Of a DNA stretch of 10,569 bases, positions 1 through 10,193 are shown piece after piece. The DNA comes from Deltaproteobacteria bacterium (GTDB lineage: Bacteria > Myxococcota > B64-G9). Location: positions 1 to 10,569 of the forward strand of contig JAUVAM010000055.1 of the NCBI GenBank assembly GCA_030591745.1, given 5' to 3'. Positions within the stretch are counted from its first letter, which is position 1, and every line of letters starts with the position of its first letter. Made by a program: the position numbers and the translations under genes. The notes under the pieces are model-generated. The model ran no database searches, was not told where the DNA came from, and saw only the letters and a list, made by a program, of their open reading frames with translations.

Positions 1-1131
1 GAAGGGCGCGGCGTCATGGAAAGAACGCACGGCCACCTCGTCAAAGAACTTCACCCCGGAAGAAGTAACCACGGAGACCTGGCTTAGGGCCCCGCTCTTT
101 TCCAAAGAAACGTTAAGCAGTGTATAGCGGTCCTTGACCCCGTAAATGTTGCCGTAGGGATCGCGGCGAATGTACTCCTCGCCCACCCTGGGCGACCAAT
201 ACTGGCTCACGCCCCGCTTCACCCTGTTGAAGAAGGTGGCGTACTTGAACTCCTTGCTGTTGAGCAGCGAGGCCTCGCCCTCGTCCACGTCTTCAACGTG
301 GTCGTTGGCGGGCGCCCCTGTGACCATATCCAATTGGTCGAGGCTGGGGCGTCTGAACATGGCCACCGTACTTTCGTGCTGCCCCTGCTCTCCCGTCTGC
401 TCATCGGCCTGTTCGCTGCCCTCTCCTTTTTGCAGCCTGAGCTTGTCCGAGTTGCCGCTCATGGCTTCGCTGGCGTCGTAGGCGGCCATCTCACCCATTT
501 TCAAATCCAATTTCAAATGAAGAGCATCTCTCTTCTTCAAATCGGGCACTTCGAAGGCGGGCATCTTGTACTCGGTCGCCTGCTGCTGATCGCCCTGCTT
601 GCGGGTCAAGAGGGCCACATCGTCTAATCCTTCGTCCTGCTGGGGCTCGGGCCGGCGGCGAGATGACTCGGCGATGGTGGGCCTGGGTTGGGCCACCCCG
701 TAATCCGACCGCCGATGCCGGCTGATGCTCTCTTTTTCCACCTGCGTGTTGTGCTCGGACAAGAATCGGGCATCTTCAGGCGGGTTCTTGTCGGGGGTGG
801 GCGCCAAGTCCACCACCTGCCCCTCGGGATCCTTCTCTTCCTTTTTCTCTTCTTCCGGCACTTCGGGCTGCGGTGGCTTCTGCTCTTCCTTCTTCTCTTC
901 CACCTTCACCTTGGGCAAAATCTGACGATTGGCCTCGAAGTCCCGGGGGCTCATGGCCAACAAGGTGACTTCCGTATTCTCCTGCACTTTGGGCTTCGGC
1001 ACCAGGTCGGCAAACCAGTTATACATACCCGGCAGCAGACCGGTGAAAATCAGCTCCGCATGGACAAAAAGCGCCACGAGCAAGGCCACCAGCAATGGCT
1101 TGTAATTTCTGGCTGGCCGGTTCTCGGACAT
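1..1131 (-). CDS. TonB-family energy-transducing protein, C-terminus cut by the window edge
   Basis: An open frame with no stop runs from an ATG at 1131 to the left edge (377 codons, incomplete). The N-terminus is short and basic, followed by one hydrophobic segment at about residues 13-35, as expected for an inner-membrane anchor. Residues about 75-120 are rich in Lys, Glu and Pro, including KVEEKKEEQKPPQPEVPEEE, which resembles the extended periplasm-spanning linker of TonB proteins. Residues about 120-290 are hydrophilic and low in complexity. From about residue 295 a TonB C-terminal-like domain starts, with YATFFNRVKRGVSQYW and later LLNVSLEKSGALSQVSVVTS and AVRSFHDAAPF; it is cut before its end. 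TonB proteins transmit proton-motive-force energy to outer-membrane transporters. The linker is long for a classical TonB, so a related envelope or motility protein with a TonB-like C-terminus is possible. It is probably transcribed separately from the upstream operon. Confidence 0.8.
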   Translation of the reverse strand, partial: MSENRPARNYKPLLVALLVALFVHAELIFTGLLPGMYNWFADLVPKPKVQENTEVTLLAMSPRDFEANRQILPKVKVEEKKEEQKPPQPEVPEEEKKEEKDPEGQVVDLAPTPDKNPPEDARFLSEHNTQVEKESISRHRRSDYGVAQPRPTIAESSRRRPEPQQDEGLDDVALLTRKQGDQQQATEYKMPAFEVPDLKKRDALHLKLDLKMGEMAAYDASEAMSGNSDKLRLQKGEGSEQADEQTGEQGQHESTVAMFRRPSLDQLDMVTGAPANDHVEDVDEGEASLLNSKEFKYATFFNRVKRGVSQYWSPRVGEEYIRRDPYGNIYGVKDRYTLLNVSLEKSGALSQVSVVTSSGVKFFDEVAVRSFHDAAPF

Positions 1132-1228: not shown

Positions 1229-1714
1229 TCAGACAGCTTCAAGCCTGTTCAGCAGCGATCGAATCCGATTGGCGTGGCCCTGTTCCTGTTTGGCCAATTC
1301 CTCAAAAAGCGCATACAAATCTGACAACTGGCTCAGGGACAAGAGGGTGTTGTAAAGATCCCGGGTGGCGATTTCGCGGCGGTGGGCAACCTGCAAGACA
1401 CCGGCCGCATCCGATGCCTCAGGCAGGCCCGGGGCTTGGACGATACGCTCGACCGCCTCTTTCAGATTCGCATCATCGATGAGACCCGTCTTTTCAGGCA
1501 GGACCTCATATCGCTTCATCAAGCGATCGCGGTGGCTGACTTCGTCCTGAATCAGCTTGGCCAACAACGCGATCACCTCTGCATCCTGCTCGGCTTCGTC
1601 AAGCGAGAGTTGCCGTTTATGAGCCTCTTCATAAAAAGTCTTGGACTCTTCTTCGATACGAATGGCGAACTGAACGATGCCTTCCAGGCTCAGTTCAGGG
1701 GCTGCATTCGACAT
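1229..1714 (-). CDS. Ferritin-like / rubrerythrin-family diiron protein
   Basis: This 161-residue protein is predicted to be a four-helix ferritin-like domain. The diiron ligand pattern can be traced: a Glu in the first helix (EEESKTFYEE, residues 21-30), an ExxH at E58/H61 (QDEVSH), a Glu at 114 (HRREIATRDLY) and a second ExxH at E144/H147 (KQEQGH). No rubredoxin-type CxxC iron site is present, so it is a rubrerythrin core domain rather than a full rubrerythrin. Members of this broad family reduce peroxide, store iron or have unassigned roles. The start at 1714 is preceded by GAGGAG with a 6-base spacer and lies one base after the stop of the fusion oxidoreductase, so the two are very probably translated together. 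It may protect the oxygen-sensitive Fe-S complex from peroxide or assist it; that is inference from position. Confidence 0.85.
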   Translation of the reverse strand: MSNAAPELSLEGIVQFAIRIEEESKTFYEEAHKRQLSLDEAEQDAEVIALLAKLIQDEVSHRDRLMKRYEVLPEKTGLIDDANLKEAVERIVQAPGLPEASDAAGVLQVAHRREIATRDLYNTLLSLSQLSDLYALFEELAKQEQGHANRIRSLLNRLEAV

Positions 1715-1715
1715 A

Positions 1716-3623
1716 TCAAGCTCCTCGCTCAGGTCCAGGGTCGGTCAAAAGTTCATCAATGGCCCGGGCCGCGTTGTGGCCGTCCCGGATGGCCGAAATC
1801 ACATCCGGCCCATGGATGATGTCGCCGGCCACGAAAATCTTCGATTCCGGCGTGGCACCCGTGTCGTTGCGGGCGAAGCGTCCCCGGGTGATACCCAGTT
1901 TTTCCTGGTCTTCTTCGCTGAGAAAGCCGTAGCCCGGTGCCTGGCCGATGGCCTCGATGACCTGACTGCCGGCATAGAAAGCCTTATCGTCCTCATCGAT
2001 CTTGGGGTTAAAACGCCCCTCCTCGTCGAAGACTTGCAGACAACGAGCCACCTCCAGCCCATCCACTTTTCCAGCCTCATCAAGCCGGATTCGCTTGGGG
2101 GCCCAGCCCGGCTCGATGATCACGCCCTCCTCTCGGCTCTCCTCGATCTCCTCCTGGTCCGCCGGCATCTCTTCTTCGCACTCCAGACTCGTGAGCAGCA
2201 TATCCACCTTGCCGAAGCGCTGCTTTTGCAGTCTGGCCAAGCTGCGGACGATATCCATGGCCACGTTGCCACCGCCGATGACCACGATTTTTTCGTGAAG
2301 AGGGACCTCTTTGCCCAAGCGAATATCATTGAGCAACAAGATGGCCCGCTGCACGTCTTTGTGATCGTGGTTCTCGATTCGGGTACTGCGTCCGCCAGGA
2401 AAACCCACGGCGATGATCAGGGCATCGTGCTCATCTTTGAGCTTTGTCCACGCAGCAGGATCGTCCACCTTGCTGTTACAGCGAATTTCCACGCCCATGG
2501 CGACGATGGCCTCAAGGTCCCGGTCGATGGCCTCGTCGGGCAGACGGTAAGCCGGGATGCCGTATCGCATGGTGCCGCCCGCCTTGGGCATGCGCTCGAA
2601 GAGCGTGATCTGATGCCCCATGTGGGCCAAATAGTATGCCGCGGCCAAACCAGCCGGCCCGGCGCCCACGATGGCCACCCTCTTGCCGCTGGGTTTGATG
2701 ACGGCTTTTTTCGCTTCTTCCGAATCCGGATCAAGACTCTTGGATATTTCGCTCACCTGCTCGGCGGGCAGGGCATCAATGGCGTAACGCTTGAGCCAGC
2801 GAATGGCCACGGCTTCGCCCCTGTGAGAAAGAGCACAAACCGATTCGCAATTGTGGGTACAGATTCGACCGCAAACCGAGGGCAAGGGATTGGTGCGATA
2901 GATCTGACGCACCGATTCGGGCAAATCGCCATCGAAGATGCCGCGGATGTATTCGGGGATGTTCATATGGGCAGGGCAAGTATCGGTGCAAAGGCCACAT
3001 TCGACGCAACGCTGGGCTTCTTCCATGGCGGCTTGGGCCGAAAAGCCCTTGACGAACTCCACGAAACTGCCGATGCGCTCGGCCGCCTCCATCATCTCCA
3101 TGGGCCGACGGGTAAAATCCAGCCAGGACAAAGCCGGCTCAGCCTGCCAGCTTTTCTCCCCGGCATGGGTCTGATCCGGCTGGATGGTGAAAGCGGCTTG
3201 CTTCCAGCGCAACCCCTCTAAGGGATCCTCTTTGATGGATGGTTGCGTATAGATGTAGTTCCGACTCATGGACAAAGAGCCCGTGGGGCAAACGTCCACG
3301 CAAAAAGCGCAGAAACAGCAGCGGCCATAGTCCACAACGGGCCGTTCCGGATTGGTGCCCTCCGCCCCTTCAGGCGCTTCTTCTCCTTCGGCCCGCGGTG
3401 GCACCTTCATGTTGATGGCCGCCGTGGGGCACACGGTTGAGCAGGTGCCGCAGCCGATGCAGACCTCGTGATCGTTGGTGTGCATGCCACGATAGATCAT
3501 GGAGGCACCTTTTTTCTCATGGACCTCCAGGTCTTCCGCCGGGTAACGGATGGTCAAGGGTTTGCGGAACAAGTTGGCCAAGACCGCAAAAGGCGCGAAA
3601 AATGATTTTTCTCCAAGGGCCAT
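1716..3623 (-). CDS. NuoI/MbxN-like ferredoxin subunit fused to a GltD/NfnL-type FAD-NAD(P)H oxidoreductase
   Basis: This 635-residue protein has two parts. Residues 1-125 are NuoI/MbhN-like: a membrane-peripheral start (LFRKPLTIRYP, 18-28) and two [4Fe-4S] motifs, C55/C58/C61/C65 and C102/C105/C108/C112, separated by an acidic Pro/Glu insert (75-95). Residues about 200-635 match the GltD/NfnL/AegA flavoprotein family. They show Fe-S cysteines C206/C209/C212/C216 and C251/C255/C259/C263, an FAD-binding GAGPAGLAAAYYLA at 320-333, the GIPAYRLP segment at 355-362, a second Rossmann motif GGGNVAMDIVRSLAR (450-464) for NAD(P), and the closing FAD motif VAGDIIHGPDVISAIRDG (598-615). Such flavoproteins pass electrons between NAD(P)H and Fe-S carriers. 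The start at 3623 has AGGAG upstream; the gene follows the NuoD-like gene by 19 bases and precedes the ferritin-like gene by one. The fusion implies direct NAD(P)H exchange with the membrane complex. AegA of E. coli has a similar C-terminal part but an HycB-type ferredoxin domain. Confidence 0.92.
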   Translation of the reverse strand: MALGEKSFFAPFAVLANLFRKPLTIRYPAEDLEVHEKKGASMIYRGMHTNDHEVCIGCGTCSTVCPTAAINMKVPPRAEGEEAPEGAEGTNPERPVVDYGRCCFCAFCVDVCPTGSLSMSRNYIYTQPSIKEDPLEGLRWKQAAFTIQPDQTHAGEKSWQAEPALSWLDFTRRPMEMMEAAERIGSFVEFVKGFSAQAAMEEAQRCVECGLCTDTCPAHMNIPEYIRGIFDGDLPESVRQIYRTNPLPSVCGRICTHNCESVCALSHRGEAVAIRWLKRYAIDALPAEQVSEISKSLDPDSEEAKKAVIKPSGKRVAIVGAGPAGLAAAYYLAHMGHQITLFERMPKAGGTMRYGIPAYRLPDEAIDRDLEAIVAMGVEIRCNSKVDDPAAWTKLKDEHDALIIAVGFPGGRSTRIENHDHKDVQRAILLLNDIRLGKEVPLHEKIVVIGGGNVAMDIVRSLARLQKQRFGKVDMLLTSLECEEEMPADQEEIEESREEGVIIEPGWAPKRIRLDEAGKVDGLEVARCLQVFDEEGRFNPKIDEDDKAFYAGSQVIEAIGQAPGYGFLSEEDQEKLGITRGRFARNDTGATPESKIFVAGDIIHGPDVISAIRDGHNAARAIDELLTDPGPERGA

Positions 3624-3642: not shown

Positions 3643-4794
3643 TCAACGATCGATGTCCGGTGGACAGACGCTGAAAGACATCATCCAGGCCGCCACATCG
3701 TCGATCTTCATGCCCGGCAAATGCTTGTGGCATAAATACATGCCGGCCGGGAGGGAAGGTCCGCGCACGGCGACCCGATAAGGCGTCAAACCACCGTCGC
3801 TGACCACGTAATAGCCGAACTCGCCTTTGGACGACTCCACCTTGGAGTAAGCGTCACCGGCGGGCACGCGCAATTTCATCAAGTTACCCATGTTGAGGCG
3901 GACCGGGCCATCGGGAATCTGGGCGGCCAGGCGCCGGATGATCCGCAGGGATTCATGGTAATCCATACGCACCTGCACCGCGCGAGCCAGGGCATCGCCT
4001 CCACCCGAACAGGCCACCTTCACCTCCACCTCGTCATAGGCCGCATAAGGCGCATCCACCCGCACATCGGCGGCTACGCCTGTGGCCCTGAGGCTTGGCC
4101 CCACGATACCCGATGCCACAGCGTCTTCGGCCGAGATATACCCCAAGCCGCTCAAACGACTGTGCACGACCCTGTTCTCAAAAAGCAATCGGTCCCAGGT
4201 AAGCAGGCGATCTTCCAGGGTGTCCACCAGCTTGAGCAATTTGTCCAACCATCCATCGGGCAGATCTCGGCGCACACCACCGGGCACGTTGTAAATGTGG
4301 TAGACCCGCGCGCCCGTCAAGGCCTCGAAAAGGTCCAGCAACCAGTCCCTGTCCAACATCATCAGATACATGGGCGTGTAGTGACCCAGGGAACCGCCCA
4401 GGGCACCCATGCCCATCAAGAGAGACGTCAACCTCGACATCTCCAAGGTCAGGGATCTCAGATAGCGAGCCCGGCGTGGTACTTCAACGCCCAGGATGGT
4501 CTCCACGGCCTGGCAGTACGCCACCTCGTTGGGGTCCGGGTCCACCACGCAGACCCGGGGGATCAGAGACAGGTTGGCCGCCCAGGCTTTCTTTTCCATG
4601 GACTTTTCGAAGCCGCGGTGCAGCATGCCGGCGTTGGTTCGAACTTTGACGATTTCGGGTCCCACCATGTCCAGCACATAGCCGAAGTTGCCATGCATGC
4701 CTGGGTGGTTCGGTCCAAAAAACAAATCATAGGTGGCGTACTCGTCATTTTCCGCAATCTTCTGCAGGGTGGTGTAGCCGTCGGACAAGTGCAT
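3643..4794 (-). CDS. mbxL: NuoD / hydrogenase large subunit-like catalytic subunit (MbxL-like), NiFe ligands partly lost
   Basis: This 383-residue protein belongs to the complex I 49-kDa / energy-converting hydrogenase large subunit family. Visible family features are GPNHPGMHGNFGYVLDMVG (27-45, the HPxxHG loop), NAGMLHRGFEK (54-64) and the C-terminal DIDR end. At the two places where a NiFe hydrogenase has CxxC, this protein has C82-V-V-D85 (in RVCVVD) and C377-P-P-D380 (in SVCPPD). Two of the four metal-binding cysteines are therefore aspartate, and there is no C-terminal extension to be cleaved. A classical NiFe site is unlikely; Mbx/MBS and Ehr complexes are known relatives without hydrogenase activity. 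The ATG at 4794 is preferred because GGAGGT lies 6 bases upstream. A GTG at 4797 is an alternative that adds one residue. The start overlaps the NuoC-like stop, so the two are translationally coupled. Confidence 0.93.
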   Translation of the reverse strand: MHLSDGYTTLQKIAENDEYATYDLFFGPNHPGMHGNFGYVLDMVGPEIVKVRTNAGMLHRGFEKSMEKKAWAANLSLIPRVCVVDPDPNEVAYCQAVETILGVEVPRRARYLRSLTLEMSRLTSLLMGMGALGGSLGHYTPMYLMMLDRDWLLDLFEALTGARVYHIYNVPGGVRRDLPDGWLDKLLKLVDTLEDRLLTWDRLLFENRVVHSRLSGLGYISAEDAVASGIVGPSLRATGVAADVRVDAPYAAYDEVEVKVACSGGGDALARAVQVRMDYHESLRIIRRLAAQIPDGPVRLNMGNLMKLRVPAGDAYSKVESSKGEFGYYVVSDGGLTPYRVAVRGPSLPAGMYLCHKHLPGMKIDDVAAWMMSFSVCPPDIDR

Positions 4795-5294
4795 CACTCC
4801 ACCTCCCCTTCCTCAAAGCCCAAGCCTTTCAAGGTGTAGGCCTTCATGGAATACGCGGTGGCGTCGAAGTCCTTGCGCAAAGGCGGCATGTCTTGCCAGT
4901 TGTGCAAAAACAAGGGCGACAGGTCCGGGTTGCCGGGAAAATAGGTGCCGAAGAACTCGTGGATCTCTTGCTCATAGACCTGGGCCTGACCCCAAAGTTC
5001 GTGCACCGTATGGGCCCAAGGACGATCCCGATCGATGCGGATCTTAACAAGAGCGTGAAGCTTATGCTTGTAGGACCCAAGGTGGTAGACCAACTCCAAC
5101 TCGCTCGTGTCGATCCAGTCCACGCAAGAAATGAAGGACAAATGGGCGAAGCCTTGCTGTTTGAGCCAGTTCAAGACCGACAGCAGGTTATCCCGCTCTG
5201 TCTTGACCTCAAACACGGTGCCCGGCTTGTCTGCGCACTGAACACGCTCTCCCATTGCCCGGTCCAGATCGGCCATGATATCCGAGGCGGTCAT
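4794..5294 (-). CDS. mbxK: NuoC / 30-kDa-like subunit (MbxK-like)
   Basis: This 166-residue soluble subunit belongs to the complex I 30-kDa family. The signature lies at about residues 108-143: EQEIHEFFGTYFPGNPDL, followed by LFLHNWQDMPPLRKDF. The LHxWxxxPPLRKDF ending is typical of the hydrogenase-type (Ech, Mbh, Mbx) members. The N-terminal part (VEVKTERDNLLSVLNWLK-like region, about 28-45) and CVDWID (57-62) fit the usual alpha/beta fold. It would clamp the NuoD-like and NuoB-like subunits in the peripheral arm and is not expected to carry a cofactor. The frame stays open far upstream, but the ATG at 5294 is chosen because it begins the recognisable domain, has GAGGAGGT upstream and overlaps the NuoB-like stop as ATGA. 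The C-terminus is short, as in Mbx-type proteins, with no NuoCD fusion. Confidence 0.92.
   Translation of the reverse strand: MTASDIMADLDRAMGERVQCADKPGTVFEVKTERDNLLSVLNWLKQQGFAHLSFISCVDWIDTSELELVYHLGSYKHKLHALVKIRIDRDRPWAHTVHELWGQAQVYEQEIHEFFGTYFPGNPDLSPLFLHNWQDMPPLRKDFDATAYSMKAYTLKGLGFEEGEVE
4801..4806 (-). promoter_or_regulatory. Ribosome binding site that decides the NuoD-like start
   Basis: Minus-strand GGAGGT ends 6 bases before the ATG at 4794 and 3 bases before the GTG at 4797. The spacing favours the ATG. The motif lies inside the 3' end of the NuoC-like gene. Confidence 0.65.
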
Positions 5295-5923
5295 GACTTC
5301 ACCTCCTCGGCCATGAGTTGCTCGACCGTGGGCCGCTTGGCGAAAGGATCTTCCCAGGCCTTGAGCACCGGCGTGGAGCGCTTGAGGACGGCATCCTGGT
5401 TGCGCTTGTACCAGTCGTGGTTCTCCCGGTAGCGCCGGTAGCCCACGGCCTTGCCCGCCTGGATCTGGTCCATCAACTTGTTGAAGGAGTCGATGACGGC
5501 CTGAGGCCGGGGCATGCAGCCGGCGATGGACATGTCCACCGGCATGAACATTTCCAGTTGGTTGATGACCGGGTAAGAATCCCAGTATATGCCGCCGTTG
5601 ATCGGGCAAGAACCAAAACCCACGACGTAACTGGGATCCTGCATCTGCTCGTAGGTATAGATGACCCTCTTGAGGGTCTTGGCCGAAAGGTAGCCCGTGA
5701 TGAGTAAGAGATCCGCCTGGCGTGGTGTGGCCATGGGCCCCAAGCCGAAGCGTTCCATGTCGTAGCGCGAGGTCATGGTGGGCGGCAGCTCCACCGCCCC
5801 ACAGCCCGTGCAGTAGTAGAGCATCCACATGGAGCGTTTGCGGAAATAGTTCAAAATGGTCTGCCAACCGTTTTTCTGCTCCGCCGCACTATTGAGGACT
5901 ATGAGTTCTTCTCTTTGTTCCAT
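5291..5923 (-). CDS. mbxJ: NuoB / hydrogenase small subunit-like Fe-S subunit (MbxJ-like)
   Basis: This 210-residue protein is a NuoB-family subunit predicted to hold the terminal [4Fe-4S] cluster next to the catalytic pocket. Four candidate ligands are visible: C38 and C41 in YYCTGCGAVELPP, C106 in VGFGSCPINGG and C136 in IAGCMPRP. The CxxC spacing of the first pair is the hydrogenase (Ech/Mbh/Mbx) form, unlike the adjacent CC pair of true complex I NuoB. It lies between the NuoH-like and NuoC-like genes, where the mbx operon has mbxJ. The frame extends upstream, but the ATG at 5923 begins the protein sensibly, sits 5 bases after the NuoH-like stop and has GGGGTGA upstream. The C-terminal 45 residues (YRRYRENHDWYKRN and beyond) form a basic tail longer than the minimal fold. 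The stop overlaps the next start as ATGA. Confidence 0.93.
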   Translation of the reverse strand: MEQREELIVLNSAAEQKNGWQTILNYFRKRSMWMLYYCTGCGAVELPPTMTSRYDMERFGLGPMATPRQADLLLITGYLSAKTLKRVIYTYEQMQDPSYVVGFGSCPINGGIYWDSYPVINQLEMFMPVDMSIAGCMPRPQAVIDSFNKLMDQIQAGKAVGYRRYRENHDWYKRNQDAVLKRSTPVLKAWEDPFAKRPTVEQLMAEEVKS

Positions 5924-5928
5924 CTGCG

Positions 5929-6828
5929 TCACCCCGCAAACCGAGTCAGCACGAGTTGGATCAGAGCCAACGAGCCCGCCCAGATCCACAGGTGCCTGAT
6001 GCCCTGCTCGATCCGGTAACGCGCCATGACTGCGTTGACACACATGGTGGTGAAATAAACGACGAACTGCTTGGCCGTGAAGGCGTACCAGGTCTCGGCA
6101 CCGCCGAGAAAAAGGTTCACGATCAGGCCGGTCTCTACGTAGAGCTGCACTGCGTGCATCAAAAAACCGATGCCCAGATACTTGCCCGAGAGCTCGACCA
6201 TGGGTCCGGACGCGATCTCGGAGGGAGCGATCATGTGGTCGTATGGCTTCTCGCCCACCATGGCCTGAAAAGCCAACTCCACCGCCAAAAAGCCGATGGG
6301 CATACGGAGGATGTTCCAGTTTTCCACGCCACCTTGCTGGGCCGCGGCCAGCACACCCAAATCCGAGCTACCATAGACCAACATCATCGCCATGATGACC
6401 ATGACCAAAGGAATCTTGTAGCCCAGCATCAAGGCCAGTGCCCGGGAGATGCCGATGGTGGCGTTGGGATTGCCGGAAGCGGATACGCCCATGGCCATGC
6501 CCAAATAACCGATGCTCATCAAATAGAGAATGACGACGATGGGGCTGCCCCCCAGCACCGAAACGCCGGCCAATGGAATATAGAAGGCCGTGGCGATGAG
6601 ACCGCCCAGGGCCATGATGATGCCCAGGTCCATCACATAGTTGTGGGTGATGGAGCGTTTCGTGAAACACTTAATGACGTCGATAAATGACTGGTAAAAG
6701 GGTGGACCATAGCGACTCTGGATGCGAGCGGTCACCTTGCGGCCCAGGCCCATGAAAAGCAGCCCGACGGCCATGGAGAAAAAGGCCAATCCCACCAGTT
6801 CGGCAAATTGCCATGCGCCAAAGTTCAT
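5929..6828 (-). CDS. mbxM: NuoH-like membrane subunit (MbxM-like)
   Basis: This 299-residue integral membrane protein, with about eight hydrophobic segments, belongs to the NuoH/HyfC/EchB/MbhM family that joins the peripheral arm to the membrane arm. Family features are ARIQSRYGPPFYQSFIDVIK (34-53), the acidic loop GEKPYDHMIAPSEIASG (192-208) and VELSGKYLGIGF (211-222), matching the PFD...E...G...EYSG region where acidic residues start the ion path. The open frame extends upstream to 7056, but that part overlaps the preceding gene and shows no membrane character. The ATG at 6828 gives a normal-length protein and overlaps the upstream stop as ATGA; a GGGGGTG sequence precedes it as a weak ribosome site. 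Its place before the NuoB-like gene is the Mbx order; in mbh operons the M gene comes after L. Confidence 0.92.
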   Translation of the reverse strand: MNFGAWQFAELVGLAFFSMAVGLLFMGLGRKVTARIQSRYGPPFYQSFIDVIKCFTKRSITHNYVMDLGIIMALGGLIATAFYIPLAGVSVLGGSPIVVILYLMSIGYLGMAMGVSASGNPNATIGISRALALMLGYKIPLVMVIMAMMLVYGSSDLGVLAAAQQGGVENWNILRMPIGFLAVELAFQAMVGEKPYDHMIAPSEIASGPMVELSGKYLGIGFLMHAVQLYVETGLIVNLFLGGAETWYAFTAKQFVVYFTTMCVNAVMARYRIEQGIRHLWIWAGSLALIQLVLTRFAG

Positions 6829-8714
6829 CGGAGCACCCCCAGCAACCACAGCAGGCCCAAGCCCAGGCCAAAGGACCAGACCAGAGAGCGGCCTTCCGTC
6901 CACAGGCCGGCCAAAAAACCACCAGCACGGTGCAGAGACCGAGCCATTTGTCGATAGGCCTGCTCCACGGCTCCCAAGGGCACCCAGCGGAACAGAACGC
7001 GGATGGGCAGATAAAAGGAATGCCCGTAGTGATAATCCTCGGGACGCATTTTCCAATCCGCCGGCTCCTCACCGCTGGTGTAATTGTCCATCATCCCCAC
7101 CTTGCGACGGCCGGCACCCAGCAGGAAAAGAACAAAAACGATCAGGACAGCAAGACCGAAAGCCACGGCAATGCCGCCGGCTTCGATGCTTGCCGTGGCA
7201 CCGGTGATGGAGAAGAGATCAGCCTGTAAGGCCTGCATGCCCTGTGCGGAAAGAACCTCGTTGATGGGCCCGGTGAAAACGCCAGGAGCCACGCCACCCA
7301 GCATCATCACGCCCATCAAGATTATCATGGCCAGGGACATGGGCCAGGGTGCCTCACGCAATTTGGCGTGCCTGTCGGAGAGCTGACCCAAAAAGACGCT
7401 GTGCAAGGCGCGGAACAAATACAAAAACGCGCCGGTGGAGGCGAAGAACAGGGCCGTGGCCAAGAAAACCAAATCCTTGTCGAAGAGGGCCTGGAAAATA
7501 AGCCACTTGGAGTTAAAACCGCTCAAGGGCGGAATGCCTGCCGCGGCGATGATACCCAAAAGGAAGGTGAAAAAACTCACCGGCATGACGTAGGCCAGGC
7601 CTCCCAATTTGTGCATCTCCCGCTCGCCGGTGCGATGCTTGACCGCGGCCAAGGACGCGAAAATGGCACCCTTGAAAAACATGTGGTTGGCCGTGTGGAA
7701 CAAAGCCGCGGCATAGCCCAAAGAACTGCCCGTGGCCAAGGCCGTTGCGATGTAGCCCACGTTGGCCACCGTGGAATGGGCCATCAGGCGCTTCATGTCG
7801 TTGGAGAAAATGGCCATCAAGGTGCCAACCACAGCGGTGAGGGCCCCGATCCAGGCAAGCAAATACATGGGCCAAGGCAGACCGGCCACGGTGGCTACGC
7901 TCGAACCACCGCTTGAGGCGGCGACGAAGACGGGGACCACGAAGACCAGAAAGCCATAAAGGCCGTACTTGATCATGACGCCTGATAGATAGGCCGAGAA
8001 ATCGTCCGGCGCCTCGGCGTGGGCCATGGCCGGCCACATATGGAAAGGAAAGAGAGCCGACTTGGCCAAGAAAGCAGCGCCAAAAAGAAAGATGACCGGG
8101 CAGGCGAAGGCCGGGTTGGTGCTCAGATCCGCGGCCAGGGCGGTCACCGAAGTCGCGATATCGAAAGAACCGGTCCGAGCGTAGATGAACCACAGCCCCA
8201 CCATCATGGCCAGGGTGCCGGCCAGGCTCAGCAGATAGTAAAACAAACCCGCTTTGAAACTTTGATTCTTGCCGTGGCCGATGATGAACAAAGAGGTCCA
8301 GGCCATGAGTTCCCAAAGAGCAAAAAAGACCAACCAGGAGGCTGACAGAAAAATGCCGTTCGAGGCACCCAGCAGCATGAGCCAGAGCGGTGCCACCCTG
8401 GTGGCGTGCTTGTGATCGTTAAAGCCCAGGGAGAAAAGAGCGAAGAGCATCGACGCAACCGCCGAGATGGCCAAGAAGAACCAGGAAAGCTGGCTCAGCT
8501 TCAAACCCAGGGCCACCTCACCCACGGGTTGGTATTGCAAGCCCAAAAAGGACCAACTCAGGCCAATCCCATCATGCAACATGGCCACGACGACCAATAC
8601 GCCCAGGTTGACCAGGAAAAACAAACCCCAGGCCAAACGCTTGGGCAAGGCAAAGGCCAAAAGACCCAAGGCCACCGGCACGGCGATTAAGAGGGGAAGC
8701 ATCAAGGCGTCCAT
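6825..8714 (-). CDS. mbxH': Antiporter-like membrane subunit with C-terminal extension (MbxH'-like, NuoL/MrpA/D family)
   Basis: This 629-residue polytopic protein belongs to the proton-translocating antiporter-like family (Proton_antipo_M). Conserved ion-path positions are intact: the Glu of FALWELMAWTS (E135), the Lys of FLAKSALFPFHMWPAMAHAE (K218), and the Lys of LSGVMIKYGLYG (K249). DMKRLMAHSTVANVGY (306-321) and IPPLSGFNSKW (394-404) are also typical. Residues about 540-629 form an extension beyond the usual core: a soluble YTSGEEPADW segment (545-554), an amphipathic stretch and a final hydrophobic helix. This may take the place of the lateral helix or the separate MbhI subunit; that is inference. 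The start at 8714 follows the upstream stop by 3 bases and has GGGAGGT upstream. It forms part of the ion-pumping membrane arm. Confidence 0.92.
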   Translation of the reverse strand: MDALMLPLLIAVPVALGLLAFALPKRLAWGLFFLVNLGVLVVVAMLHDGIGLSWSFLGLQYQPVGEVALGLKLSQLSWFFLAISAVASMLFALFSLGFNDHKHATRVAPLWLMLLGASNGIFLSASWLVFFALWELMAWTSLFIIGHGKNQSFKAGLFYYLLSLAGTLAMMVGLWFIYARTGSFDIATSVTALAADLSTNPAFACPVIFLFGAAFLAKSALFPFHMWPAMAHAEAPDDFSAYLSGVMIKYGLYGFLVFVVPVFVAASSGGSSVATVAGLPWPMYLLAWIGALTAVVGTLMAIFSNDMKRLMAHSTVANVGYIATALATGSSLGYAAALFHTANHMFFKGAIFASLAAVKHRTGEREMHKLGGLAYVMPVSFFTFLLGIIAAAGIPPLSGFNSKWLIFQALFDKDLVFLATALFFASTGAFLYLFRALHSVFLGQLSDRHAKLREAPWPMSLAMIILMGVMMLGGVAPGVFTGPINEVLSAQGMQALQADLFSITGATASIEAGGIAVAFGLAVLIVFVLFLLGAGRRKVGMMDNYTSGEEPADWKMRPEDYHYGHSFYLPIRVLFRWVPLGAVEQAYRQMARSLHRAGGFLAGLWTEGRSLVWSFGLGLGLLWLLGVLR

Positions 8715-8717
8715 GAT

Positions 8718-10193
8718 TTACCTCCCCGCCAATTGTTGAACCGAGCTGATGTAGGCAGGGCCAAGTTGACCGGGAATCTTCGCAAGCGTTTTGTCCAAGA
8801 GGCCGGGCCAAACCCCCAAGAGCAGGATCAAAATCGCTGAGATCAAGGCCACGGACCCAAAGGCCAGACCATAGGACACGGGCTTGGTTTCTCTCTCGGA
8901 AGACTCAAAAAGCCGGTGGGCCAGACGGAAAAAGTAGGCCGCTTCGACCACTGTTGCACCCAGGATCACGTAGATGCCAATCAGGTAAAACTCACCAGCC
9001 CGGGCCGCCTCGCCCACAACGGCGAACTTTCCCCAAAAGCCGGAGAAAAAAGGCACCCCGATAATCCCCAGGCTGCCGATGATGAAAGCCACGCCCAGCA
9101 TGGGGTTACGTCGCCCCATGCCGGTCCATTCTTTCCATCTGGAGGTCTTTGTGCTCGATACCAAGACACCCACCACCATGAACAGCAGGAGCTTGACCAG
9201 CCCATGACTGATGGCGATGAATAGGCCGCCATAAATGGCCGCCTCCGTCCCCAAGGAAAATGCGATCAAGACCAATCCCATCTGAGCCGCGGACGAAAAC
9301 CCAAGAAGTTTTTTGGCGTCATCAGAAGCCAAAGCGGACAGCTCGCCCACCACCACCGTGATCACGCCCAGGACGAAGAGGGCTTGAGACAGGACCAGGC
9401 CCTGACCGGAAACCAATATGGTGCCGTTGATGCGCAGCAGCGCATAAACACCCGCCAGGGCCATGCCGCCCGACAAGAGAGCGCCAACGGAGGAAGGCGC
9501 GCCTCTGTAAACCTCGGGCACCCAGGCATTGAAAGGAAAAATCTTGGCCTCGAAGAGCAAAGGGGCCAAAAGACACAGGCCCGCGAATGCGGCTACGGCC
9601 GGCTTGAGCCCCTGGAATCCAGCAGCCACCGCGGCGATGTTCAAAGTACCCAGGCTGCGATAGATGAAGGCCACGCCCACCAGATACAGCACCGAGGCCA
9701 CCGTGCCCAAGACCAGCAACTTGGCGGCACCTCGTACCCCCACCCGCCCGTTACCGGATGCCACCAGGGCGTAGCTGGAAATGCCGGCGATCTCGATAAA
9801 AACGAAGAGGTTGAACAAGTCGCCGGTAAACAAAATACCCAAAACGCCCACGTACCAAAACAAAAGCAGCATGTAAAAAGCAGGCGGCTTGTCCGTCCCG
9901 CGGGCCATCTGAAACCAGACCGCGCCCAAGCTAAGAAAGCTCGTCACCAGGGCAAAAAGCAGGCTCAGGTGATCGAAGTGCAAATGGATGCCGAAGGGCG
10001 GTGCCCAGCCGCCCATGATGATCATGAGCGGCGCATCTCCCAGACCGGTCAGCAACCAGGTCGCCATGACAGTGCCACCGGCCAGGACCAACAGAGTCAA
10101 ACCCTTGACCAAAACTGCTGAGAGCCTGCCCAAAATGGGAATGGAGAAGGCGACGCCCAAAGGAATCGCCAACATGAGCACGGGCTGATTCAT
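8718..10193 (-). CDS. mbxH: Antiporter-like membrane subunit (MbxH-like, MrpD/NuoN family)
   Basis: This 491-residue polytopic protein has about fourteen hydrophobic segments and belongs to the MrpD/NuoN group of antiporter-like subunits. GDLFNLFVFIEIAGISSYAL (124-143) carries the conserved Glu (E134). DDAKKLLGFSSAAQMGLV (291-308) and PFFSGFWGKF (381-390) are also family-like. In the central channel, however, the usual K-x-x-x-x-P motif reads FEAKIFPFNAWVPEVY (214-229), with Glu at the expected Lys position and a Lys two residues later. The usual Lys of the SGxxxKxGVYA helix is Leu (L246 in SGGMALAGVYA). It may therefore conduct ions differently from its neighbour or serve as a structural antiporter module. 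The start at 10193 overlaps the MrpC-like stop as ATGA and has GAGGTG upstream. Confidence 0.92.
   Translation of the reverse strand: MNQPVLMLAIPLGVAFSIPILGRLSAVLVKGLTLLVLAGGTVMATWLLTGLGDAPLMIIMGGWAPPFGIHLHFDHLSLLFALVTSFLSLGAVWFQMARGTDKPPAFYMLLLFWYVGVLGILFTGDLFNLFVFIEIAGISSYALVASGNGRVGVRGAAKLLVLGTVASVLYLVGVAFIYRSLGTLNIAAVAAGFQGLKPAVAAFAGLCLLAPLLFEAKIFPFNAWVPEVYRGAPSSVGALLSGGMALAGVYALLRINGTILVSGQGLVLSQALFVLGVITVVVGELSALASDDAKKLLGFSSAAQMGLVLIAFSLGTEAAIYGGLFIAISHGLVKLLLFMVVGVLVSSTKTSRWKEWTGMGRRNPMLGVAFIIGSLGIIGVPFFSGFWGKFAVVGEAARAGEFYLIGIYVILGATVVEAAYFFRLAHRLFESSERETKPVSYGLAFGSVALISAILILLLGVWPGLLDKTLAKIPGQLGPAYISSVQQLAGR

What the first reader, a model, noticed from the sequence alone, without database searches (positions are those of the whole stretch)
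1716..3623. NuoI/MbxN subunit fused to a GltD-type NAD(P)H flavoprotein in a complex I-like operon
The sequence shows, in one uninterrupted frame, a NuoI-type ferredoxin domain with two [4Fe-4S] motifs and a full GltD/NfnL-like domain with eight further Cys, FAD and NAD(P) Rossmann motifs. In archaeal Mbx/MBS, MbxN ends after the ferredoxin part and takes electrons from soluble ferredoxin. Here the fusion would bring pyridine nucleotide directly to the complex, acting as a substitute for the NuoEFG module. This suggests an ion-pumping NAD(P)H (or ferredoxin:NAD(P)) oxidoreductase of a type I do not know as characterised.
Basis: partly seen in the sequence, partly recalled or inferred. Interest (0 to 1): 0.8.

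Follow-up and report, generated by a model that had tools for sequence, protein, structure and literature searches.

The report
Complex I relative with NAD(P)H flavoprotein
The gene joins the ferredoxin-like subunit of a membrane ion pump related to respiratory complex I to a flavoprotein that looks built to bind NADH, so the pump is predicted to be fed by NADH; the fusion is real and recurs in many anaerobic and sulfur bacteria, but what the complex does has not been tested.

Summary
Minus-strand ORF 3623..1716 (635 aa) is one open frame: a NuoI/MbxN-type 2x[4Fe-4S] domain followed by a complete GltD/NfnL-type flavoprotein. It is no assembly artefact: a 97%-identical copy sits in the same operon of another genome (dN/dS about 0.07), and all 82 loci examined (80 of them fetched as relatives) carry the fusion. 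The other subunits match the sulfane reductase MBS better than complex I or hydrogenase, and MbsJ's proximal-cluster motif is kept. Two residues refine the reading. NfnL's NADPH-binding YRR is replaced by S-L-E, predicting NADH; its Glu cluster ligand is replaced by an invariant Lys, as in non-bifurcating StnC. In ten Thermotogota genomes Nfn genes follow the operon, and the nine fusions there carry YRR. Best reading: electron-input subunit of an NADH-linked MBX complex coupling NADH oxidation to sulfane reduction (or the reverse) and ion transport. Substrate, direction and pumping are inferred. The architecture is in databases (NCBIfam PRK13984, no function given); I found no paper on its function in the open-access library searched. 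A diiron ferritin-like gene follows and is fused to it in some relatives.

The parts
1716..3623 (-). MbxN-GltD fusion protein, 635 aa, predicted electron-input subunit
3189..3623 (-). NuoI/MbxN-type domain (residues about 1-145), two [4Fe-4S] motifs
   Evidence: best solved match of this part: 6u8y_N, E 8.1e-23; Cys invariant
1740..3128 (-). GltD/NfnL-type domain (residues 166-628): eight Cys for two [4Fe-4S] clusters, FAD and NAD(H) sites
2790..2792 (-). Lys278 codon, at the position of NfnB Glu117 / StnC Lys170, ligand of the cluster next to FAD
   Evidence: residue numbers counted along the alignments; K in 80 of 80
2181..2189 (-). Ser479-Leu480-Glu481, replacing the NADPH-binding YRR motif of NfnL
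   Evidence: alignments; Leu 78 of 80 and Glu 78 of 80
3643..4797 (-). MbxL (NuoD-like), 384 aa
   Evidence: best solved match MbsL 6u8y_L, E 5.7e-100, next Nqo4 1.4e-63
4794..5294 (-). MbxK (NuoC-like), about 166 aa
   Evidence: PF00329; start read
5291..5923 (-). MbxJ (NuoB-like), 210 aa, proximal [4Fe-4S] cluster, CTGCGxxExPP motif
   Evidence: best solved match MbsJ 6u8y_J, E 7.2e-70, ungapped
5929..6828 (-). MbxM (NuoH-like) membrane anchor
   Evidence: best solved match 6u8y_M, E 1.3e-50
6825..8714 (-). MbxH' (NuoL/M-like antiporter subunit), 629 aa
   Evidence: best solved match 6u8y_X, E 8.1e-71
8718..10193 (-). MbxH (MrpD-like antiporter subunit), 491 aa
   Evidence: PF00361; NF006241 344.9 bits
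10190..10567 (-). MbxG (MrpC/NuoK-like), 125 aa; the rest of the operon lies beyond the window
   Evidence: PF00420; MrpB-, G-, F- and E-like ORFs follow in the G001 copy
1229..1714 (-). ferritin-like diiron protein, 161 aa, starting 1 base after the fusion's stop; accessory
   Evidence: PF02915; ligands E21, E58, H61, E114, E144, H147 in 22 of 22 rows, window included; PF02915 fused to the C-terminus in P0089 and P0099

Best explanation
The protein is subunit N of a bacterial MBX complex (a Mrp-containing relative of complex I and of the sulfane reductase MBS) with an NADH dehydrogenase module built in. Proposed path: NADH gives a hydride to the FAD of the GltD-like part; electrons leave one at a time through its two [4Fe-4S] clusters (the one next to FAD held by Lys278), cross to the two clusters of the NuoI-like part, and reach the three-Cys proximal cluster of MbxJ. 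There they reduce sulfane sulfur (polysulfide), which drives Na+ or H+ transport through the MbxH/H' antiporter subunits. Because NADH and polysulfide have similar potentials (recalled: about -320 against about -260 to -275 mV), the enzyme should be reversible and move few ions, and could make NADH from sulfide in sulfur oxidisers. Shown: the fusion, its conservation, the operon, and the cofactor and cluster motifs. Inferred: NADH use, electron order, sulfane as substrate, pumping, direction.
For: Subunits match MBS best: L 5.7e-100, next best 1.4e-63; J 7.2e-70, next best 1.3e-32; H' 8.1e-71 and M 1.3e-50, next best 1.7e-41 and 2.1e-22, both MBH. In a tree of 48 rows the bacterial MBX rows and MbsL are split from two outgroup rows at 99/98. 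The three Cys that hold the sulfane-reducing cluster in MBS (PMC7684303, passages) are kept in 100 of 100 distinct MbxJ; the quinone Tyr position of Nqo4 is Val in 116 of 116 distinct MbxL; the Cys dispensable in MBS (C25) is Gly in 33 of 100 (with duplicates 110, 126 and 35 of 110). SLE replaces YRR; a study of the related DsrL found YRR enzymes to use NADP(H), and DsrL-1 enzymes with residues drawn from S/T - L/V/.. - F/E/.. to use NAD(H) (PMC7596348, passages). Lys278 aligns with the cluster-ligating Lys170 of non-bifurcating StnC (PMC10482914, passages; alignment). In nine fusions of Thermotogota genomes whose MBX operon continues into NfnS-NfnL the motif is YRR. In T. maritima mbxA rose 4.36-fold with sulfur (PMC9431562, passages), and T. 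maritima is the only one of 14 control genomes over the PRK13984 cut-off.
Against: No biochemistry. The window MbxL keeps a His (H35) at the Nqo4 H38 position, absent in MBS; it is His in 33 of 116 distinct MBX-type rows. The driving force from NADH to polysulfide is small. PMC9431562 (passages) assigns ferredoxin as donor of the T. maritima MBX, and ferredoxin could still enter at the NuoI-like clusters. In 16 of 82 loci a dihydroorotate-dehydrogenase-like gene lies directly downstream (one representative matched to PRK07565), which could mean another partner of the flavoprotein. Distances between clusters and FAD could not be measured. The YRR/Nfn association comes from one group of similar genomes and may be a single event. 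In four loci (L061, L062, L063, L067) no MBX gene was found near the fusion.
Confidence: 0.55

Rival explanations
1. Ferredoxin stays the donor: reduced ferredoxin feeds the NuoI-like clusters and the GltD module is a second port that exchanges electrons with NAD(H), so the complex links ferredoxin, NADH and ion transport (Rnf-like), with or without sulfane.
For: Archaeal MBS takes electrons from ferredoxin through MbsN (PMC7684303, passages); ferredoxin is the donor assigned to T. maritima MBX (PMC9431562, passages); one genome, G221, has an unfused MbxN without the GltD part.
Against: The flavin module follows MbxL in 29 of 30 Thermotogota loci fetched and 14 of 16 Spirochaetota matches, and all 16 Cys are kept in 80 of 80 fusions counted; a mere side port would be expected to be lost more often.
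Confidence: 0.2
2. The complex uses another electron acceptor or substrate (a quinone, an organic disulfide, or a neighbouring flavoenzyme), and the MBS-like site is only ancestry.
For: H35 at the quinone His position in the window; DHODH-like gene next to the fusion in 16 of 82 loci.
Against: The quinone Tyr is Val in 116 of 116 distinct MbxL; the three sulfane-cluster Cys and the E61 and P64 positions are kept in 100 of 100 distinct MbxJ.
Confidence: 0.15
3. Electron bifurcation at the GltD FAD (NfnL-like), splitting electrons between ferredoxin and the membrane path.
Against: The NfnB Glu117 cluster ligand is Lys in 80 of 80, as in StnC, whose GltD flavin does not bifurcate although it keeps the Arg (PMC10482914, passages).
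Confidence: 0.06
4. Assembly or sequencing error joining two genes.
For: None found.
Against: Independent 97%-identical copy, low dN/dS, 82 of 82 loci fused, junction conserved in alignments.
Confidence: 0.01

Closest known systems
MBS of Pyrococcus furiosus (PDB 6u8y; PMC7684303, passages)
   Same: Subunit set, closest sequences for J, L, M and H', three-Cys proximal-cluster motif, lack of the quinone Tyr
   Different: MbsN is 208 aa and the chain matched only the NuoI part; it takes electrons from ferredoxin; MBS lacks the H38-type His that the window keeps
NCBIfam PRK13984 (NF010590), 'putative oxidoreductase'
   Same: Same full-length fusion architecture
   Different: The window scores 757 against a cut-off of 946; the model carries no function
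StnC of Sporomusa ovata (PDB 8oh5; PMC10482914, passages)
   Same: GltD-type module feeding a complex-I-type Fe-S domain; conserved Lys ligand; non-bifurcating flavin
   Different: The partner domain is NuoG-like, bifurcation is done by StnAB, and the cofactor is NADPH (YRRT)
NfnL/NfnB
   Different: NADPH motif YRR and Glu117 ligand, both replaced in the window
Respiratory complex I (NuoA-N)
   Same: Homologous B, C, D, H, I, K and antiporter-type subunits; NADH input predicted
   Different: No NuoEFG; CxxC not CC in NuoB; Mrp-type membrane arm
DsrL-1 (PMC7596348, passages)
   Same: GltD-related flavoprotein with a non-YRR motif that uses NAD(H) in sulfur metabolism
   Different: Partner of DsrAB; not fused to NuoI

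Membership tests
MBX/MBS-type complex | Mrp-type membrane subunits (E, F, G, B, C, D) plus H', M, J, K, L, N in one operon | tested here: met
   Full order in the G001 copy L009 and in relatives; 48 of 82 loci held at least 8 of the 11 non-N subunits searched, many others being cut by contig ends; the window itself ends after MrpC
MBX/MBS-type complex | J, L, M and H' closer to MBS than to complex I or MBH | tested here: met
MBX/MBS-type complex | Proximal cluster held by three Cys of MbsJ (C28, C93, C123) | tested here: met
   Aligned Cys in the window and in 100 of 100 distinct relatives; real coordination not tested
MBS proper | Absence of both Nqo4 H38 and Y87 | tested here: not met
   Y87 position is Val84, but H35 stands at the H38 position
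MBS proper | Free-standing MbsN fed by ferredoxin | tested here: not met
   MbxN is fused to GltD; ferredoxin use not testable
Complex I | NuoEFG input module in the operon | tested here: not met
   Not in the window; NuoF-type hit in 1 of 82 loci, a 94-aa ORF in L027; NuoE and NuoG were not searched in the loci
Complex I | Tandem Cys of cluster N2 in NuoB | tested here: not met
   CTGC in the window
NfnL (bifurcating) | YRR motif for NADPH | tested here: not met
   S-L-E in the window
NfnL (bifurcating) | Glu ligand of the cluster next to FAD | tested here: not met
   Lys278
PRK13984 (NF010590) | Curated score cut-off 946 bits | tested here: not met
   757 bits over the full length; P0096 scores 1157
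NADH-linked MBX | NADH:sulfane oxidoreductase activity with ion transport | not testable with these tools
   needs purified enzyme

The most novel reading that the evidence does not exclude
Bacterial MBX is a large, uncharacterised class of NADH- (in one group NADPH-) driven, reversible sulfane-linked ion pumps. It replaces the NuoEFG module by one fused flavoprotein, switches cofactor by a three-residue motif, serves as the only complex-I-like enzyme in many anaerobes, and in sulfur oxidisers may run backwards to make NADH from sulfide.
Probability: 0.4. Interest if true: 0.75.

Novelty: new variant of a known kind. Interest (0 to 1): 0.55.

Why it matters
MBX is treated as ferredoxin-driven in the T. 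maritima paper (PMC9431562, passages), and the MBX of the Riftia symbiont is listed among complexes of unknown function or direction (PMC11636981, passages). If the bacterial form takes NADH, energy budgets of sulfur-reducing fermenters and sulfur oxidisers change, and MBS-like complexes gain a route to a pyridine-nucleotide input that is independent of NuoEFG. It is directly testable in cultured Thermotoga, Halanaerobium or Prolixibacter.

Tried and rejected
Own genome: not held; nearest genome G001 used instead. Among the 195 genomes of G001's phylum searched, only G001 has the fusion at E 1e-120. G001 is listed with 6% contamination, so the host lineage of the window is not established. The nearest named relatives in the MbxL tree are 'Deltaproteobacteria' HGW-22 and a Polyangiaceae MAG.

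Bifurcation was considered and set low because of Lys278. NADPH as cofactor of the window protein was considered and set low because of the SLE motif. An assembly error was rejected.

Distances between clusters and FAD could not be computed: no coordinates are laid in the Python box.

The fusion is not always in the MBX operon: in L061, L062, L063 and L067 (Thiotrichales/Beggiatoa-type) no MBX gene was found in the DNA held around it. For L063 the genome has MbxB-C-D elsewhere, with no N gene found in the roughly 1.5 kb held behind D. The other three genomes were not searched. L085 lacked detectable D, C, B and H; L032 is cut by its contig end.

Tree caveats: one MBS row only, and two long-branched outgroup rows that join each other: L114, an ordinary NuoD, and L157, a row that I first took for NuoD but whose RICGIC and CFSC motifs look like a group 4 [NiFe] hydrogenase (motifs recalled).

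Literature: searches. None of the listings or passages that I saw describes a NuoI-GltD fusion. Three papers that might (tried by DOIs recalled from memory) are not held, so prior mention in subscription papers cannot be excluded.

Full report

2. It is real and selected. Genome G001 carries a 97%-identical copy in the same gene order, and a second, distant MBX operon with its own fusion (48% identity). Window against G001: dN 0.017, dS 0.247. With the two G001 loci that makes 82, and all 82 have the fused ORF. In 76 the NuoD-like gene is directly upstream: the script counted 75, and I add L073, where an overlong open frame hid it. Records named among the 80 include Bacteroidota, Spirochaetota, Thermotogota, Halanaerobium, Cloacimonadota, Neomarinimicrobiota, WOR-3, gammaproteobacterial sulfur bacteria (such as Thiomargarita and Sedimenticola) and deltaproteobacterial MAGs.

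3. Starting from the NuoD-like subunit instead, 70 of 103 Thermotogota genomes and 14 of 296 Spirochaetota genomes have a match at 1e-70. Of the 30 Thermotogota loci fetched (of 70 matches), 29 have the fusion behind it. Of 16 Spirochaetota matches, 14 do; one is cut by the contig end (L146), and one (L157) looks like a group 4 hydrogenase rather than MBX. So in these samples the fusion is the usual form of this complex.

4. The complex is MBX/MBS-like. The L, J, M and H' subunits match Pyrococcus MBS (6u8y) far better than complex I or MBH. MbxJ keeps the MBS motif CTGCGxxExPP without gaps. The three Cys that hold the sulfane-reducing cluster in MBS are kept in 100 of 100 distinct sequences, while the Cys shown to be dispensable there is Gly in 33 of 100 (MBS facts from passages of PMC7684303). 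The quinone Tyr of Nqo4 is Val in 116 of 116. Against a pure MBS reading, the window keeps a His at the Nqo4 H38 position, as do 33 of 116. NuoEFG genes are absent from the window; among the 82 loci one 94-aa NuoF-type ORF was seen.

5. Cofactor. In all five solved relatives whose alignments were printed, the residues after the second Rossmann strand read Y-R-R-S/T. Passages of PMC7596348 say that this motif holds the extra phosphate of NADP(H) in NfnB, and that DsrL enzymes without it, with combinations drawn from S/T - L/V/.. - F/E/.., use NAD(H). The window has S-L-E; Leu and Glu are each found in 78 of 80 loci and in all 75 rows of A2. NADH is therefore predicted.

6. A natural contrast. 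In a group of ten Thermotogota genomes the MBX operon continues directly into NfnS and NfnL (10 of 10 loci; family models run for two of them). Nine of these ten have the fusion, and in 9 of 9 it carries YRR instead of SLE, with all 16 Cys and Lys278 kept. The tenth (G221) has an unfused MbxN. This fits a module whose cofactor follows the operon's redox partner, but the genomes are alike (two of them were put in the tree and join at 100/100), so it may be one event.

7. Flavin chemistry. The Glu117 ligand of the cluster next to FAD in NfnB aligns with Lys278, invariant in 80 of 80. StnC, whose GltD flavin does not bifurcate, has Lys170 at the same place, and its replacement by Ala or Cys caused a severe loss of activity (PMC10482914, passages). 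A plain two-electron to one-electron input is therefore more likely than bifurcation.

8. Mechanism. Best reading: NADH to FAD, to the two GltD clusters, to the two NuoI clusters, to the three-Cys cluster of MbxJ, to sulfane sulfur, coupled to Na+ or H+ movement by the Mrp-type arm. The potentials (recalled) make it nearly reversible. In T. maritima mbxA is induced 4.36-fold by sulfur, and that paper assumes ferredoxin as donor (PMC9431562, passages). T. maritima encodes a protein over the PRK13984 cut-off; I did not see its position in that genome.

9. Accessory genes. A ferritin-like gene with a complete diiron ligand set starts one base after the fusion's stop. It is adjacent in 25 and fused in 4 of 76 loci with enough downstream DNA, and not detected in 47; 6 further loci were too short. 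A protective role against oxygen or peroxide is a guess. A DHODH-like gene follows the fusion in 16 of 82 loci, mostly Bacteroidota, and a CBS-domain gene in 12 of 82 from several phyla, 3 of them behind the DHODH-like gene (one representative of each typed by family model).

10. Verdict. Real, widespread, and mechanistically readable; function unproven. The architecture is in databases, so the novelty is functional: an NAD(P)H-linked variant of MBX. In 8 of 9 genomes tested this was the only NuoD-type match at 1e-40 (mostly draft genomes), so it may be their only complex-I-like enzyme.

Noticed in passing
window 1229-1714: Ferritin-like diiron gene directly behind the fusion; fused to the fusion's C-terminus in relatives (P0089, P0099). 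In L162 three ORFs behind the fusion look ferritin-like (by eye).
   Followed up: partly
L160, L161, L163-L170: NfnS- and NfnL-like genes directly downstream of the MBX operon in ten Thermotogota genomes; the nine fusions there have the NADPH-type YRR motif, and G221 has an unfused MbxN.
   Followed up: yes
L019, L020, L024, L030, L050 and 11 other loci: DHODH-like gene directly downstream of the fusion (L050 copy matches PRK07565); a CBS-domain gene in 12 loci, 3 of them after the DHODH-like gene.
   Followed up: partly
L061, L062, L063, L067: In Thiotrichales/Beggiatoa-type genomes the fusion lies apart from MBX genes; in L063's genome MbxB-C-D is elsewhere.
   Followed up: partly
L010 (G001 contig C22): G001 carries a second complete MBX operon with a 48%-identical fusion; no other of the 195 genomes of its phylum searched has a fusion at E 1e-120.
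   Followed up: partly
window 1-1131, minus strand: Open frame of 377 aa cut by the window end, with a weak C-terminal match to the TonB family (TIGR01352, 19.9 bits, under its cut-off of 27.1).
   Followed up: partly
L009 2282-5541: Genes that look like glycine-cleavage gcvH and gcvP subunits beside the operon in G001 (recalled resemblance, no search run).
   Followed up: no
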